Assembly: GCA_944350365.1 (NCBI GenBank)
Contig: CALVOU010000012.1
Location: 1 to 33,870 of the forward strand
DNA length: 33,870 nucleotides
Source: an uncultured Bacilli bacterium
GTDB lineage: Bacteria; Bacillota_I; Bacilli_A; RF39; UBA660
Reading direction: 5' to 3'
Made by a program: the position numbers and the translations under genes. Below the pieces are notes generated by a model, which was not told the DNA's origin, did no database searches, and saw only the letters and a program-made list of their open reading frames with translations. Shown piece by piece: positions 24,979 to 33,189 of this stretch; the stretch's first letter is position 1, and each line of letters begins with the position of its first letter.

Positions 24979-25842
24979 TTATTCTTCTTTTAATCGATCT
25001 ACGGTAATTAATCCGAAATTATTTTCTTTCATATCCCGTAAAATAATTTGGTAAGTTTTATCATAATCCATTATACCACCTTTTTTTAAAGCTCCTCTAC
25101 GTTTGGCAATTTCTTCTAAAATATTTTCTTCATTATCTAAATTAACCAATTTATAGCGTTCTTTTAGTCGTTCTGGATATAATCTTTTTAATAGATCGAT
25201 GACAAACATAGCGAGCATCTCCGGATCGACTAATTCTTCTTTGATTGAAGATAGGCAAGCTAATATTTTGGCTTGATATTGATCATCTAATTTTGGCCAC
25301 AATATACCTGGTGAATCCAAAAGTTCTATTCCTTGTCCAATTCTTATCCAACTTAGGTTTCTAGTTACACCTGGACGATTTCCGGTACTAACCACTTTTT
25401 TATTTACTAGACTATTAATCAATGTACTCTTTCCTACATTAGGTGTTCCGATTACTAAAGCTCTAATACTTCTTGGTTTTAGTCCTTTTTTTATTCGTAG
25501 TTGTTGCATTGGTTCTAAAAGTCTATTACTTTCTTTGATGATTTTATCTGTTGTTCCTGATTGATTTAGCATAACTGGAATTACACTATAGCCTTGTTCT
25601 TCATAATTTTTCAAAATTTTGTCAGTTTCTTCCTTATCACAAAGATCGTATTTAGTAACCACTAATATTCTAGGCTTGTCCTTTAATAAAGAATCAATAT
25701 CTTTTACTTTAGAACTAAGTGGCATCCTAGCATCTATTACTTCGTAAACGATATCGATAAGATCAATTTTTTCTTTAATTTCCCGTCTTGCTTTTGCCAT
25801 ATGACCGGGGTATGAGTTAATATTTGTTTTATTTTCATTCAT
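24979..25842 (-). CDS. rbgA: ribosome biogenesis GTPase RbgA (YlqF)
   Basis: RbgA is needed for late assembly of the 50S subunit in Gram-positive bacteria. The 287-aa product is a circularly permuted GTPase: G4 (TKYD) comes first near residue 63, followed by the P-loop GTPNVGKST near 132, the switch region RPGVTR and G3 DSPG. A C-terminal helical domain (from about 190) binds rRNA. It opens NINSYPGHMAKARREI, as in YlqF. I start it at ATG 25842, six bases after AGGTGA; that site is inside the last codons of the upstream DUF1016 gene, so the genes overlap by 8 bases. Confidence 0.95.
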   Translation of the reverse strand: MNENKTNINSYPGHMAKARREIKEKIDLIDIVYEVIDARMPLSSKVKDIDSLLKDKPRILVVTKYDLCDKEETDKILKNYEEQGYSVIPVMLNQSGTTDKIIKESNRLLEPMQQLRIKKGLKPRSIRALVIGTPNVGKSTLINSLVNKKVVSTGNRPGVTRNLSWIRIGQGIELLDSPGILWPKLDDQYQAKILACLSSIKEELVDPEMLAMFVIDLLKRLYPERLKERYKLVNLDNEENILEEIAKRRGALKKGGIMDYDKTYQIILRDMKENNFGLITVDRLKEE

Positions 25843-26881
25843 TTTTATCACCTGTTTCATTTGCTAATTCGTATAATTCTTTTTCATCACGAATTATCTT
25901 AATCAGTTCTTCTTTAGTAGGCAAATATGTTAAATATTTTGAAGCATACACATTTTTTACACTATCTCCTAATGTCATCTCTACAACTGCATCATCTTTA
26001 TCTGCACATAGTAGTATGCCAATAGGGTCATTTTCTCCTTCAATCATTTGCGTCTTCTTATAATAATTTACATACATTTGCATTTGACCAATATCTTGAT
26101 GAGTCAATTTTCCGATTTTTAAATCAATTATTACAAAACACTTTGCTAATCTATTATAGAATATTAAATCAGGATAATAATATTCTGTTCCTATTTTTAT
26201 ACGCTGTTGGTTAGCCACAAACGAAAATCCTCTGCCTAATTCTAACAAAAATTCTGTTAAATGGGATAATAGCGCTGTTTCTAAATCTGTTTCTAAATAG
26301 TTTCTATTTTCTTTTAATCCTGCAAATTCAAATATATAGGGATTTTTCAAAAGTTCTTCTGGTTGTTTTTCAATTAATCCCTTTTTGGAATTTTCAATAA
26401 TTAGTTCTTTATCAGGGGATATTAAATATCTATCATACAATTTTGTATTGATTTGTCTGTTTAGCTCCCTATATCCCCAATTCGATTTAATCGCTTCTTG
26501 TTCATAAAATTTTCTTTCTTCTTTGCGATCTATTCTAATCAGTTCTTGAAAATGTGACCAAGATAATTCGGTCGGCACTGCCGACCATATTGGATACATT
26601 TCATAAAATCTTCGCATTCTTCTAATACTTACTGAAGAAAAACCACTTCCAAATTCTTTGGTTAATTTAGAAGATAAAGCATCAATTATCTTTTTTCCAT
26701 AACTTGCCTTTGTGCTATTCTCAGATAGCTCATAAGTTATTTTACCAACATACCAATACACTTCTGTCATGGTAGTATCAATATGTTTAAACATTTTTTC
26801 TCTAGCATTTATTATCTTACTTCGTATATCCTGATAAATATTTTCAACATCTATTAACTCATTATCATTATTTAATGTCAT
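25835..26881 (-). CDS. YhcG-like PDDEXK nuclease (DUF1016)
   Basis: A 348-aa protein with the two DUF1016 domains. The N-terminal helical domain (NAREKMFKHIDTTMTEVYWY, then SVSIRRMRRFYEMYP and LSWSHFQELIRI) is thought to bind DNA. The C-terminal PD-(D/E)xK nuclease domain runs from about residue 195, with LGRGFSFVANQQRI, YYPDLIF (Asp238) and VIIDLKIGKLTH (Asp253, Lys255). Relatives are spread by transfer and often sit in restriction or defence loci; activity is little studied. I start it at ATG 26881 (AAAGGA seven bases upstream); a GTG 27 bases further up is possible. It is oddly joined by overlap to the housekeeping gene rbgA. Confidence 0.9.
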   Translation of the reverse strand: MTLNNDNELIDVENIYQDIRSKIINAREKMFKHIDTTMTEVYWYVGKITYELSENSTKASYGKKIIDALSSKLTKEFGSGFSSVSIRRMRRFYEMYPIWSAVPTELSWSHFQELIRIDRKEERKFYEQEAIKSNWGYRELNRQINTKLYDRYLISPDKELIIENSKKGLIEKQPEELLKNPYIFEFAGLKENRNYLETDLETALLSHLTEFLLELGRGFSFVANQQRIKIGTEYYYPDLIFYNRLAKCFVIIDLKIGKLTHQDIGQMQMYVNYYKKTQMIEGENDPIGILLCADKDDAVVEMTLGDSVKNVYASKYLTYLPTKEELIKIIRDEKELYELANETGDKNE

Positions 26882-26933
26882 TTCATTTTCCTTTTTCAAT
26901 ATTATCACATCCTTTCGTTTTTACAAGAGGAGG

Positions 26934-28553: not shown

Positions 28554-29129
28554 TTATCTACTATTTTGATTAGTTTCTTTGTCATACATTTCTTTATCCA
28601 GATAATAATAATCTGAAATGTATTTCATTTTATCATATTCTCTTACGTGAGACTCACTTTTTAAATATTTGAATCCTTGGGATAAACAAACTTTTTTCGA
28701 TTTTTCGTTTGATTGAAAACAACCATAGATAAATTTTTCTCCTTTTAATTTGGAGAACACTAAATCTTTTAATGCGGATACTACTTCTTTTCCATATCCC
28801 CTACCTTGATACTTTGTCGCAATACAGATTCCACTTTCTTCATATATCCCTTTTTCTTGTTCATTCACTCCACAGAAGCCAATTGCTTTATCATTCGTTT
28901 TTAAACATACAAAATAGGCATAATGTTCACTCTGATATTTTATTGTTCTCTCCATTCTTTTTTTCGCTTCTTCTAGACTGGTGGTTACTTCCCATAACAT
29001 ATTTTCAGCGATACGTTTATCGGACCATATATTTTTCCAGATTGAATTTAAGTCTTCAAACTTAGCTTTTCTTAGAATTAAATGTTTGGTTTCTATTTCT
29101 AATTCTTTAATCATTTTTTTCTCTTCCAT
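28554..29129 (-). CDS. GNAT-family N-acetyltransferase
   Basis: The protein has the RimJ/RimL-type layout: ETKHLILRKAKFEDL at the start, a beta strand AIGFCGVNEQ, then GICIATKYQGRGYGKEVVSAL with the acetyl-CoA loop Q-G-R-G-Y-G, and NEKSKKVCLSQGFKYLKSE near the end. It may acetylate a protein N-terminus or a small molecule; the target cannot be read. The start is uncertain: ATG 29129 is used here, ATG 29165 and ATG 29114 are in frame, and none has a good ribosome binding site. It lies between the GmrSD-type nuclease (60 bases upstream) and the deoxyribosyltransferase-like gene. Confidence 0.85.
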   Translation of the reverse strand: MEEKKMIKELEIETKHLILRKAKFEDLNSIWKNIWSDKRIAENMLWEVTTSLEEAKKRMERTIKYQSEHYAYFVCLKTNDKAIGFCGVNEQEKGIYEESGICIATKYQGRGYGKEVVSALKDLVFSKLKGEKFIYGCFQSNEKSKKVCLSQGFKYLKSESHVREYDKMKYISDYYYLDKEMYDKETNQNSR

Positions 29130-29189
29130 ATTATTCACTTTTCTTTTAAAGATTTTCATTTTCAATATTTTTATATACTAAAAATCTTA

Positions 29190-31295
29190 TCATATAAGTT
29201 CGTTAGCTAGTACTTGATTATCTAATTTTTCTAAATCAAAATCATAATACTTTTTCATTAATTGGATAAATTTATTGGTATCATTTCGTAAACATATTGT
29301 TCTTACATAGACCGTTAAGTCATTACATTCTAGTTTTGTATAAGCATAATCTTCTTCTATTTCATTTTTTATTAATTCATGAGAATACATTTTAAAATTT
29401 CTAATTTCATCAGGTATAGAAAAATAATCATGGATATGATTTTCATTAATATAATGTTTCAATATACTTAATACCAACCCTTTATTCGTCAAATATTCAT
29501 TTTCATATTTCCATTTATGAAATGCATTTATTCTTGGTTCCTCTTCTACCACTTTATCTATATCTTCTTTAGAAATATCTAACATATCTTCAATCAACTC
29601 GAGTAAGTCCTTTTGACGATCCATAATATGTTGAACATCCCAAACAGTATCTCCTTTATTATACTTATCGATGATCCATTTAGTAGTATCAAAAGTGGTT
29701 ATTCCGTTCTTTTTGTTTCCTTCTCCTTGATAGATCTTAATTTTTCTATCTAAACCATGATTTAGTGCTTCTTCATTTTTACTTCCTTGTAACAAGGCCA
29801 TATTTCCTAATTTATTCAAGTAAGTCTTTGCGAGAGATATATCTTTAATATTTTCCCATTCATCAAGCCTTTTATCAAATCGCTGAGGTAAGATATGATC
29901 TAAATGAATCGTATTGTTTAACTTATAAAAATTAGTATTAATGTCCTCTCTTATCTCATATTCAATGGATAACATTAATGGTTTTAAAAAATTCTGATCA
30001 TAAACATCATCCTCTAATACTTGATAGACATCACGAATTAGTCTCTTTCCAAACATAAACTTATCTAACATTGTGCGAATTTCTTCTATCGATTTTCTAT
30101 CCACTATAGCTTCAATTAAATTAAATGAAGTTTGTTTAATCCCATTTAATGTTTTTCCGGATATCCAAGAAATATAGAAGAATCTTCTCATCACTTGAAA
30201 CAATTCTTCTTTATCAGGATAATCGACTTGATAAGCACTTGCTAAAGCAGTCATTACATAAGCTTTCCAAGGAATATATCTTAAACTATAAATGACGGGT
30301 AGAGTAGATTTATATATTGTTTTTAAATGATCAGCAAAAGCTCTCATTTCGTCAACTAAGAAAGTAACTTCTGACTTTTGAATGATTTTCTTTAATTCGT
30401 CAGTAACTTGTCTTTTAGGATTACTCTTTAATTTAAAATATTCATAATACACTAGAAAGTCATCCATAGTAAAATTATATTCACTAGCGATTTCTTCCAT
30501 AGCTGTCCAATTATTACTAAAAGCGATTTTATCGTCATTACTATATTTGTCGTTAGAGTCATACTTATCTAAAAGATAAGATTTCACAATATCAGAAATA
30601 CCGAGTTCTAAGCCTCGATCATTTAATACTAAAAATAATTTAATCGCAAATGATTGATTTGTACATACTGTTTTAATAATACATGTTTTAAATAATATGA
30701 AATTGACAAATTCATCTAAGGCAGTTTGTCCTTCTTTTTGATATAGTTCATTAAACTTATCATAGAAAAACTTAGCGGTATTGATAAATTTATATTTGGG
30801 TTCATTCTTTTTCAATTCTGCTTGTGTTGGGTAATGAATATTTTCATAATGTTCAGGATAAATAATAATCTGTTTAAATGAAGTATTATAATTTGGATCA
30901 AGCTGTAACTGTAGACGATCAATTCCTTCATCAAAATAGATTAATTGTTTAATCTTCTGTAAGTTTCCCTTCAATAATTCTTTTGAGTTTTCATTGAGAT
31001 TAGGAAATGTCTTAAAAAGGACATTTAACATAATCATCAAAGTAGTTATTCTTTGTTGACCATCAACGAGTTCATGATGTCCAACACCATCGTCAACGAC
31101 AACGATTGAACCTAAGAAATAACATTCATTTGGTGTATTTATATAGGATTCATATAAATCACTCCATAATTCTTCTAATTGTTCATTTCCCCAACTATAC
31201 TGTCTTTGATAATTTGGAATAACATATATAGCTGGGCAAGAAAATAATTGATAAATTGTTTGATTATCTGGTTTAAAGGTTTGATCGATATTCAT
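29190..31295 (-). CDS. DUF262/DUF1524 nuclease (GmrSD-type)
   Basis: A 701-aa fusion of the two GmrSD halves. The N-terminal DUF262 (ParB/sulfiredoxin-like) domain shows IPNYQRQYSW (26-35), FLGSIVVVDD, the nucleotide-binding DGQQR motif (78-82) and LNDRGLELGISDIVKSYLL (225-243). The DUF1524 His-Me finger nuclease follows, with HLDHILPQRF (464-473) and the YLNKLGNMALL helix with its Asn (494, 498). In known type IV enzymes the DUF262 part uses NTP and the DUF1524 part cuts modified phage DNA. Residues about 585-701 form an extra C-terminal domain I cannot assign. AAGGAG precedes the ATG. It follows the SWIM gene by 19 bases. The stop is TGA. Confidence 0.92.
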   Translation of the reverse strand: MNIDQTFKPDNQTIYQLFSCPAIYVIPNYQRQYSWGNEQLEELWSDLYESYINTPNECYFLGSIVVVDDGVGHHELVDGQQRITTLMIMLNVLFKTFPNLNENSKELLKGNLQKIKQLIYFDEGIDRLQLQLDPNYNTSFKQIIIYPEHYENIHYPTQAELKKNEPKYKFINTAKFFYDKFNELYQKEGQTALDEFVNFILFKTCIIKTVCTNQSFAIKLFLVLNDRGLELGISDIVKSYLLDKYDSNDKYSNDDKIAFSNNWTAMEEIASEYNFTMDDFLVYYEYFKLKSNPKRQVTDELKKIIQKSEVTFLVDEMRAFADHLKTIYKSTLPVIYSLRYIPWKAYVMTALASAYQVDYPDKEELFQVMRRFFYISWISGKTLNGIKQTSFNLIEAIVDRKSIEEIRTMLDKFMFGKRLIRDVYQVLEDDVYDQNFLKPLMLSIEYEIREDINTNFYKLNNTIHLDHILPQRFDKRLDEWENIKDISLAKTYLNKLGNMALLQGSKNEEALNHGLDRKIKIYQGEGNKKNGITTFDTTKWIIDKYNKGDTVWDVQHIMDRQKDLLELIEDMLDISKEDIDKVVEEEPRINAFHKWKYENEYLTNKGLVLSILKHYINENHIHDYFSIPDEIRNFKMYSHELIKNEIEEDYAYTKLECNDLTVYVRTICLRNDTNKFIQLMKKYYDFDLEKLDNQVLANELI

Positions 31296-31314
31296 TATAT
31301 TTTTCTCCTTTCGC

Positions 31315-32349
31315 TCATGAATTATCCTCTAGAAAAGCGCTAATCATCTTAGTGAGTTCTTCATCATCTGTATCTTCTAATACCTCCCAATTAAATTTAT
31401 GGTTAATATCAAGAATCGGAACAAGTTCTAATTCACCATAGTGATTAATTATTTCAAAATTTTGTTCAATAATACCTAAACATAAAAAATAATCAAAATC
31501 TGTAATTCTCTCTAATAAATTTTTATTAGGATTTTTATACATGATTTTATAAAAACGATTAAATTGATTATTTCGTATTGCCAAAATAACTGCATATATA
31601 TGTTTACAATAAAATTCACATGGACAAGTGCAATATACTTGCATTCTTTTTTCCTGTTCATTATATTTAATGATTACCACATATTTTTCTGTACCTTCTA
31701 CTATCGCAAAATATCTATTTTCTATTTTTTCTAGGAATTTAATCTTTCCTTCTTCATAATATTGTTTTCCTCTTTGGATAATCGGGTATTTAAAAATCTT
31801 ATTTATCTCTTCATTAAATAAATCAAAAGAAAATTCTTCTTTATATTCATACCTTTCTGTACTGTCTGTTAATTTGGCCAATAATTTGTAGAGAAATGGC
31901 TCATATCTTCTGGGCATATTTTGAAAAACAAGCAGAAAAATATCGGTTAAATTCGCTAAAGACTTAGGAATATACTTTTTAAACTGGATATTTATATCAT
32001 TAAAACTGGCTGTTTTGATATTTCCCTTTAAGATAACAATATCTTTATCTGTCAAAGCTTCATCTATATAATGGGCATTAACCTCAAAATTAGAATAAAT
32101 ATTTTCTATCGCATCTATTACTTTATTGTCAATATAACTACAAGAAAGATATTTATCTATGTTTTTCTCTTTTGTTTCATCTAAATCAAACCAACTAAGT
32201 CTATAGTTTTTACGTTTTTTCGATTGGGTTAATAATATATATAAATTGTATCCACTATAATTTAGCAGTGCTAATTCTAAGAAAATGTTCGAGTGTTTAT
32301 AATATTTCTTTATCGTAGAAATTTTATTATTATTTTTTATGTAATTCAA
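31315..32349 (-). CDS. SWIM zinc-finger protein paired with the nuclease
   Basis: A 344-aa protein with a SWIM motif, C240-x-C242 followed by C248-x-H250 (VYCTCPCEFYCKHIYAVILAI), which binds zinc and usually contacts DNA or protein partners. Just before it, YPIIQRGKQYYEEGKI is the normal lead-in of bacterial SWIM domains. The 180-residue N-terminal region (helical, Tyr/Lys-rich) and the acidic C-terminus (EDTDDEELTKMISAFLEDNS) match nothing I know. No helicase domain is attached, although SWIM proteins often partner SNF2 helicases. The start is TTG, with GGTGA six bases upstream. Only 19 bases separate it from the GmrSD-type gene, so the two are almost surely co-expressed. Confidence 0.85.
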   Translation of the reverse strand: MNYIKNNNKISTIKKYYKHSNIFLELALLNYSGYNLYILLTQSKKRKNYRLSWFDLDETKEKNIDKYLSCSYIDNKVIDAIENIYSNFEVNAHYIDEALTDKDIVILKGNIKTASFNDINIQFKKYIPKSLANLTDIFLLVFQNMPRRYEPFLYKLLAKLTDSTERYEYKEEFSFDLFNEEINKIFKYPIIQRGKQYYEEGKIKFLEKIENRYFAIVEGTEKYVVIIKYNEQEKRMQVYCTCPCEFYCKHIYAVILAIRNNQFNRFYKIMYKNPNKNLLERITDFDYFLCLGIIEQNFEIINHYGELELVPILDINHKFNWEVLEDTDDEELTKMISAFLEDNS

Positions 32350-32388
32350 TCTTTATCACCACATATCTTCTCTATTAGAAAAACTATT

Positions 32389-32814
32389 CTATTTAAAGTT
32401 GTCTTTTTCTTTTAAAATTTCTACTATTCTGCAACAATCTTGGTACACTTTTGGATACTTCTTATACCTATTTTTGATATCTTCTAATCGTCCTTCGTAA
32501 CCAACGTCATTTCCTAGTCCATCTATTTGCATATCTGCCATATTTAAAATATCCAAATAGATAGATTGGTAATTCGGATTTACTTCTCCATGATAGTAAA
32601 CTTCCCTCCAGAATTTAAATCCACTTTTCTTTAACCATTCCCCGCCTACTTTATTGTGATTTCTTCCATCTGGTGCTAGTTCATAGCCAACATCATGCAG
32701 ATAACCAATCAAAAAACAATTAGAAAGTTCTTCATCAGATAGATTATATTCTTTCGCAATCTCGACCATTTTCCTAGCTACAGCGATACTATGCTTTAAT
32801 TTATTTTCGTTCAT
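32389..32814 (-). CDS. HD-domain phosphohydrolase
   Basis: A 141-aa protein with the full HD signature: His8 (KHSIAVARKM), His40-Asp41 (GYLHDVGYE), His75 (YYHGE) and Asp94 (NMADMQIDG), which hold one or two metal ions. Small stand-alone HD proteins hydrolyse nucleotides or other phosphate esters; the substrate is not evident. The gene starts three bases after the stop of the pseudo-IrrE gene, so the two are likely coupled, and it lies 39 bases before the SWIM gene. Confidence 0.9.
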   Translation of the reverse strand: MNENKLKHSIAVARKMVEIAKEYNLSDEELSNCFLIGYLHDVGYELAPDGRNHNKVGGEWLKKSGFKFWREVYYHGEVNPNYQSIYLDILNMADMQIDGLGNDVGYEGRLEDIKNRYKKYPKVYQDCCRIVEILKEKDNFK

Positions 32815-32817
32815 CTT

Positions 32818-33189
32818 CTATAGTTCCTTTATTTTCTTTTTTTCTTTCTGTTTACTTCTATCATATAGTTGTTGAGCCAAATGATAAGTTGCTTGGTTTA
32901 TACTATCTATTCTAAAAACTGAATAGAATTCTGGTTCTTCGTCACCATCCAGTAAATATTCCGCAAGCTGATAAGCTAAGATAAATTTCTTATCTTCGAT
33001 AGGAATAGCGGAATATAAGAAAATTCGCTTGCTTTCTCCAATAAAACTTGCGCCTAAACATGAACATGGGCGTGGTTCTATATAGTTACATACTTCTATT
33101 CCTAAACTTTTCGCAAAAATCACTAAATCTCTCGGTTGATCATCTTGGGCTAAATAATTGTTTACTAACTTCGTGTTTTGTTGATTCAT
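32818..33189 (-). CDS. IrrE/ImmA-like protein lacking the HExxH site
   Basis: The 123-aa layout follows the IrrE N-terminal-like (ImmA) metallopeptidase fold: a helix, LVIFAKSLGIEVCNYI, a beta hairpin with CLGASFIGESKRIFLYS, then a helix KKFILAYQLAEYLLDG. In active members the last helix reads like FTLAHELGHYLL; here His, Glu and His are replaced by Tyr73, Gln74 and Glu77/Tyr78, so zinc peptidase activity should be lost. A helix and a Lys-rich tail follow. ImmA proteins cleave phage-type repressors; a dead version might act as a sensor or binding partner. Family assignment is from pattern only. AAAGGAG lies eight bases before the ATG; the HD gene follows after three bases. Confidence 0.65.
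   Translation of the reverse strand: MNQQNTKLVNNYLAQDDQPRDLVIFAKSLGIEVCNYIEPRPCSCLGASFIGESKRIFLYSAIPIEDKKFILAYQLAEYLLDGDEEPEFYSVFRIDSINQATYHLAQQLYDRSKQKEKKKIKEL

What the first reader, a model, noticed from the sequence alone, without database searches (positions are those of the whole stretch)
29190..32349. SWIM zinc-finger protein in a tight pair with a GmrSD-type nuclease: possible new defence module
A TTG-started SWIM protein with an unassigned 180-residue N-terminal region lies 19 bases upstream of a DUF262-DUF1524 fusion. GmrSD-type enzymes are known type IV restriction systems that act alone on modified phage DNA; a dedicated SWIM partner is not part of any such system I know. SWIM domains bind DNA or proteins, so the partner could supply target recognition or control the nuclease. 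The pairing and motifs are seen; the joint function is inference.
Basis: partly seen in the sequence, partly recalled or inferred. Interest (0 to 1): 0.7.

Follow-up and report, generated by a model that had tools for sequence, protein, structure and literature searches.

The report
Restriction nuclease with a hitchhiking SWIM protein
Two neighbouring genes in a small gut bacterium are real, an intact GmrSD-type DNA-cutting defence enzyme and a zinc-finger (SWIM) protein, but relatives of each mostly live without the other, so they look like mobile cargo travelling together rather than a new two-part defence machine.

Summary
Both genes are real and correctly placed: a fused GmrSD enzyme (29190-31295, minus) and a 344-residue SWIM protein (31315-32349, minus, TTG start), 19 bp apart. 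The pairing is not a general module. Of 40 SWIM-domain matches in 185 genomes of the phylum sample, only the window's lies within 10 kb of a DUF262 gene. Six GmrSD relatives (44-62% identical) have no SWIM neighbour; four of them follow a type I hsdR-like gene by 10-16 bp. Fourteen divergent full-length SWIM relatives have no DUF262 gene in the flanks read; eight have lost zinc ligands. The 19-bp gap is not special: its whole gene run has gaps of 3-39 bp. What remains is narrow but real. In one supported SWIM clade (95/88), three distinct loci carry a DUF262-DUF1524 gene downstream, of two very different types, and a sister genome lacks both genes at this site. One mobile element backbone (98% identical) carries two different SWIM alleles, each with different restriction cargo. 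Best reading: a stand-alone HEC-06-like GmrSD restriction enzyme, with a SWIM protein travelling in the same mobile restriction cassettes. Nothing shows that the SWIM protein acts on the nuclease.

The parts
29190..31295 (-). Fused GmrSD-type (DUF262-DUF1524) restriction endonuclease, 701 aa, nearest known model HEC-06
   Evidence: Pfam PF03235 1.7e-32 and PF07510 4.2e-12; PADLOC HEC-06 6.3e-51; DndI (9jfl) 3.4e-16 in PDB; catalytic motifs intact
31315..32349 (-). SWIM zinc-finger protein, 344 aa, TTG start; N-terminal alpha/beta domain about 1-160, SWIM about 176-268, C-terminal tail of low model confidence
   Evidence: Pfam PF04434 4.8e-6; VIA-align Z 10.3, rmsd 2.6 A over 91 residues to the SWIM region of ZSWIM8 9rwz; AF2 models
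29096..32401 (.). Segment not alignable to the sister genome G001; there the same place is 719 bp, the HAD part of an HD-HAD gene and the start of GNAT
   Evidence: blastn of window against L146
32389..32814 (-). HD-domain protein, conserved flank of the insert (fused to a HAD phosphatase in G001)
   Evidence: PF01966 4.3e-8; 88% to L146; HAD_2 1.2e-27 in L146
28554..29165 (-). GNAT acetyltransferase, conserved flank of the insert on the other side
   Evidence: PF13302 1.6e-21; 90% to L146

Best explanation
The GmrSD gene encodes a self-contained type IV restriction enzyme of the fused DUF262-DUF1524 kind. Its DUF262 (ParB/Srx-fold) domain binds and hydrolyses nucleotide and senses modified DNA, and its HNH (DUF1524) domain then cuts the invading DNA. 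The SWIM gene is a lineage-specific nucleic-acid- or protein-binding protein that travels in the same mobile restriction cassettes and was co-inserted here between HD and GNAT; it is not needed by the enzyme. Shown: domains, motifs, a sister genome with neither gene at this site, relatives of each gene without the other, exchange of SWIM together with cargo on one element. Inferred: enzyme activity, target, cotranscription, independence in function, direction of the insertion.
For: Intact GmrSD motifs and HEC-06 match; HEC-06 GmrSD-like proteins are reported to work independently (PMC11411939). Six GmrSD relatives at 44-62% identity lack SWIM, four of them 10-16 bp after a ~1,000-aa hsdR-like gene. 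In 185 genomes, 1 of 40 SWIM matches is near a DUF262 gene. Fourteen divergent full-length SWIM relatives lie by htpG, EF-Tu, EF-P, peptidase U32/SIR2 and others with no DGQQR gene in the flanks read. G001 has HD(-HAD) and GNAT adjacent with no SWIM or GmrSD. Host genes are 85-93% identical to G007 but SWIM is 71% and GmrSD 78%, so these are not vertically shared copies. L003 and L005 share a 98.25% identical conjugative backbone up to the cargo, then SWIM is 77.8% at DNA level and the rest differs. Both genes are poorer in G+C (24.7 and 27.4%) than the rest of the window (32.6% for 1-27000).
Against: Within one supported clade SWIM is followed by a DUF262-DUF1524 gene in three distinct loci with two different nuclease types, and in the window's genus the only two SWIM carriers are two of only three DUF262 carriers. 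That is more than random scatter would give. Several flanks of relatives are short, so some absences are not complete. Independence of the enzyme was not tested.
Confidence: 0.65

Rival explanations
1. A dedicated two-part module in a narrow clade: the SWIM protein binds DNA or the nuclease and targets or restrains whatever DUF262-DUF1524 enzyme is encoded downstream.
For: Same order and orientation with two DUF262 enzymes only about 27% identical: window (19 bp), L005/L009 (24 bp), and L003/L010 with a macrodomain gene between. These SWIM proteins form one clade, 95/88. No terminator-like site was found on the minus strand between the two genes.
Against: SWIM sisters L004, L006 and L007 have no DUF262 gene downstream. 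GmrSD relatives, and an 811-aa relative (42% identical) of the second type in G011, have no SWIM neighbour. L003 and L005 share one element backbone, so they are not independent.
Confidence: 0.15
2. The SWIM protein serves the mobile element or cassette rather than the nuclease, for example as a DNA-binding regulator or anti-restriction factor at the head of exchangeable restriction cargo.
For: SWIM lies at the junction of conjugation genes (TraG/VirB4-like) and restriction cargo in L003, L005 and L007, next to an integrase in L004, and its allele changes with the cargo on one backbone.
Against: The same family in other genomes sits in ordinary housekeeping neighbourhoods, and the window genome shows no close copy of the element's VirB4-like gene, best hit 24%.
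Confidence: 0.18

Closest known systems
GmrSD type IV restriction enzymes (Eco94GmrSD, BrxU)
   Same: Fused DUF262 and DUF1524 in one chain, DGQQR, FxxxN and HNH-type motifs, found in defence islands and near type I R-M genes (PMC4619093, PMC11411939)
   Different: Window protein matches only remotely by sequence; modified-DNA target not known
HEC-06 (PADLOC)
   Same: Best model over 564 residues, E 6.3e-51
   Different: C-terminal ~135 residues lie outside the model; neighbours differ
DndI (9jfl) and SspE, phosphorothioate-sensing nucleases
   Same: Same two-domain plan; DndI is the best PDB sequence match, 3.4e-16
   Different: No phosphorothioation genes seen among the window's neighbours; not searched in the whole genome
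PDC-S62 (PADLOC candidate, single SWIM protein of about 566 aa)
   Same: Shares the SWIM region, residues 181-263, E 9.6e-10
   Different: The model starts with SWIM and runs on for 470 residues that the window protein lacks; L095 is a true full-length match

Membership tests
GmrSD type IV restriction enzyme (fused form) | DUF262 and DUF1524 in one chain above curated cut-offs | tested here: met
   113.6 vs 33.2 bits and 46.6 vs 23 bits
GmrSD type IV restriction enzyme (fused form) | QR, DGQQR, FxxxN and His-Me finger motifs intact | tested here: met
   Residues 30-31, 78-82, 221-225, 464-470 and 496-498
GmrSD type IV restriction enzyme (fused form) | Cleaves modified but not unmodified DNA | not testable with these tools
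   Needs biochemistry or phage assay
TgvAB | Two adjacent DUF262 proteins, both required | tested here: not met
   Only one DUF262 gene found in the whole assembly
HEC-06 | Match along the whole model | tested here: met
   Residues 1-564 to model 1-556 of 569
DndI/SspE | Phosphorothioation genes in the same genome | not tested
   Genome-wide search not run; none annotated near the gene
SWIM zinc-finger proteins | CxCx(n)CxH ligands and SWIM fold | tested here: met
   C240, C242, C248, H250; Z 10.3 to ZSWIM8
PDC-S62 | N-terminal SWIM followed by long C-terminal region, match along the model | tested here: not met
   Only model positions 13-95 of 566 match
   1 of 40 SWIM matches in 185 genomes; confined to one narrow clade

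The most novel reading that the evidence does not exclude
In one clade of small gut Bacilli, a SWIM protein with an unassigned N-terminal domain is the fixed head of mobile restriction cassettes and works with interchangeable DUF262-DUF1524 nucleases (or other restriction genes) as a shared DNA-binding control or targeting part.
Probability: 0.13. Interest if true: 0.6.

Novelty: new member of a known kind. Interest (0 to 1): 0.27.

Why it matters
It keeps a recurring neighbour from being taken for a partner: the pairing is traced to shared mobile cargo, with a sister genome that lacks both genes at the site and counts in unrelated genomes. It also leaves a concrete small puzzle: why one SWIM clade repeatedly leads restriction cargo on conjugative elements, with its allele changing when the cargo changes.

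Tried and rejected
Phage proteins: no SWIM full-length relative in phage records or viral contigs; only short SWIM matches; an alignment-based viral scan could not be run. Plasmids: only SWIM-domain matches. Literature: no paper in the library names both SWIM and DUF262, nor SWIM zinc finger with phage defence system. N-terminal domain: no Pfam, NCBIfam or PHROG match and no significant PDB sequence match; Foldseek gave nothing at E below 0.001. Promoter-like sites were no more frequent than in shuffles, so no operon claim was built on them. Repeats flanking the pair were short and chance-like, so no insertion signature was claimed.

Full report
What is there. The window is one contig of a 1.47-Mb draft genome. 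The first in transcription order is a 344-residue protein starting at a TTG (32349); relatives align from the same start, one of them with GTG. It has a Pfam SWIM domain, E 4.8e-6, with ligands C240, C242, C248 and H250. Nineteen bases further starts a 701-residue protein with GmrSD_N (E 1.7e-32) and GmrSD_C (E 4.2e-12) and intact QR, DGQQR, FxxxN and HNH motifs. Its best defence model is HEC-06 (E 6.3e-51), its best solved relative DndI (9jfl, E 3.4e-16; structure reported in PMC11662687).

Is the spacing meaningful? Not by itself. The genes from CmpB to NDT lie in one same-strand run with gaps of 15, 3, 39, 19, 24 and 16 bp; 16 of 30 successive same-strand gaps in the window are 50 bp or less. 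Cotranscription is plausible but not shown.

General test of the pairing. In a sample of 185 genomes of the phylum, PF04434 gave 40 matches in 32 genomes and PF03235 was found in 95 genomes. Only one SWIM match lies within 10 kb of a DUF262 match on the same contig, the window itself; the next nearest is 10.8 kb away.

The SWIM family. A profile of the full-length family finds it in 20 of 385 genomes of the order (one of these, G338, matches only around the SWIM domain). In a class-wide sample the only match outside the family f1 covers the SWIM domain alone. Fourteen divergent full-length members sit by htpG, EF-Tu, EF-P, peptidase U32 and SIR2, a cation efflux gene or wall proteins, with no DGQQR-bearing gene in the stretches read, some of which are short. 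In the eight-member group made up of the htpG-linked proteins and L055 the zinc ligands are lost, so the domain's metal site is not essential to the family.

The close SWIM clade. At roughly 55-75% identity there are six distinct loci with readable downstream flanks. Three have a DUF262-DUF1524 gene: the window at 19 bp; L005/L009 at 24 bp with a different, 827-residue enzyme only 27% identical over the aligned part; and L003/L010 (also G007, G390) with a macrodomain gene between. The other three do not: L004 is next to an integrase, L006 next to a YggS-like gene, L007/L008 between a TraG-type coupling gene and, two small ORFs on, a type I hsdM. The DUF262-linked SWIM proteins form one supported clade, 95/88.

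The GmrSD side. Among its relatives in the order, six at 44-62% identity have no SWIM neighbour; four lie 10-16 bp downstream of an hsdR-like gene of about 1,000 residues (HsdR domains confirmed by Pfam in L090). That agrees with published neighbourhoods of GmrSD genes (PMC4619093; PMC11411939).

How it got here. In sister genome G001 the genes HD (fused to a HAD phosphatase) and GNAT are adjacent, with neither SWIM nor GmrSD; the window has 3.3 kb where G001 has 719 bp. The simplest reading is joint insertion, though loss and replacement in G001 is not excluded. In G007 the relatives of both genes ride on an element beside rbgA with two serine recombinases and conjugation genes. Host genes are 85-93% identical between the window genome and G007, but SWIM is 71% and GmrSD 78%, so the two genomes did not simply inherit one copy. 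L003 and L005 share 3.9 kb of element backbone at 98.25%, yet their SWIM genes are 77.8% identical and the cargo beyond differs. SWIM therefore belongs to the exchangeable cargo. The window genome itself has no close copy of that backbone.

Structure. AlphaFold2 gives the SWIM protein mean pLDDT 64, with the N-terminal domain well modelled and the tail after residue 263 poor. The SWIM part aligns to ZSWIM8 at Z 10.3. The N-terminal domain resembles Mago nashi at Z 7.6-7.9, a middling score without sequence support; it may be only a common arrangement.

Verdict. An ordinary, apparently intact HEC-06-like GmrSD enzyme beside a lineage-specific SWIM protein that shares its mobile cassette. A functional link in the narrow clade is open; nothing here demonstrates it.

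Noticed in passing
window 31858-32346 (SWIM N-terminal domain): Predicted fold resembles Mago nashi of the eukaryotic exon junction complex, VIA-align Z 7.9, 3.6 A over 117 residues, 13% identity, with the next unrelated rows near Z 4.4. Middling score, no sequence support.
   Followed up: partly
L047-L053, L055: A group of the SWIM family, seven of its eight members next to htpG, has lost most zinc ligands (CNSY and similar), so the SWIM site has decayed while the protein is kept.
   Followed up: partly
L003 and L005: One conjugative element backbone, 98.25% identical, carries two different SWIM alleles with different restriction cargo.
   Followed up: yes
L095 7756-12706 versus L096: Two relatives share a DUF262 gene and large downstream genes, but one has an ATPase (DUF4143) and a 549-aa PDC-S62-like SWIM protein inserted between.
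   Followed up: partly
window 32389-32814 and L146 6183-7271: The HD protein is fused to a HAD phosphatase in sister genome G001 but stands alone in the window and in G007.
   Followed up: partly
window 32818-33189: Short protein with a weak metalloprotease-family match (phrog_87, E 0.0044) that reads QLAEY where an ImmA/IrrE peptidase would have HExxH, so probably inactive.
   Followed up: no
window 25835-26908: 357-aa protein (phrog_22762, E 2e-79; looks YhcG-like) next to rbgA; only short fragments of it remain in sister G001.
   Followed up: no
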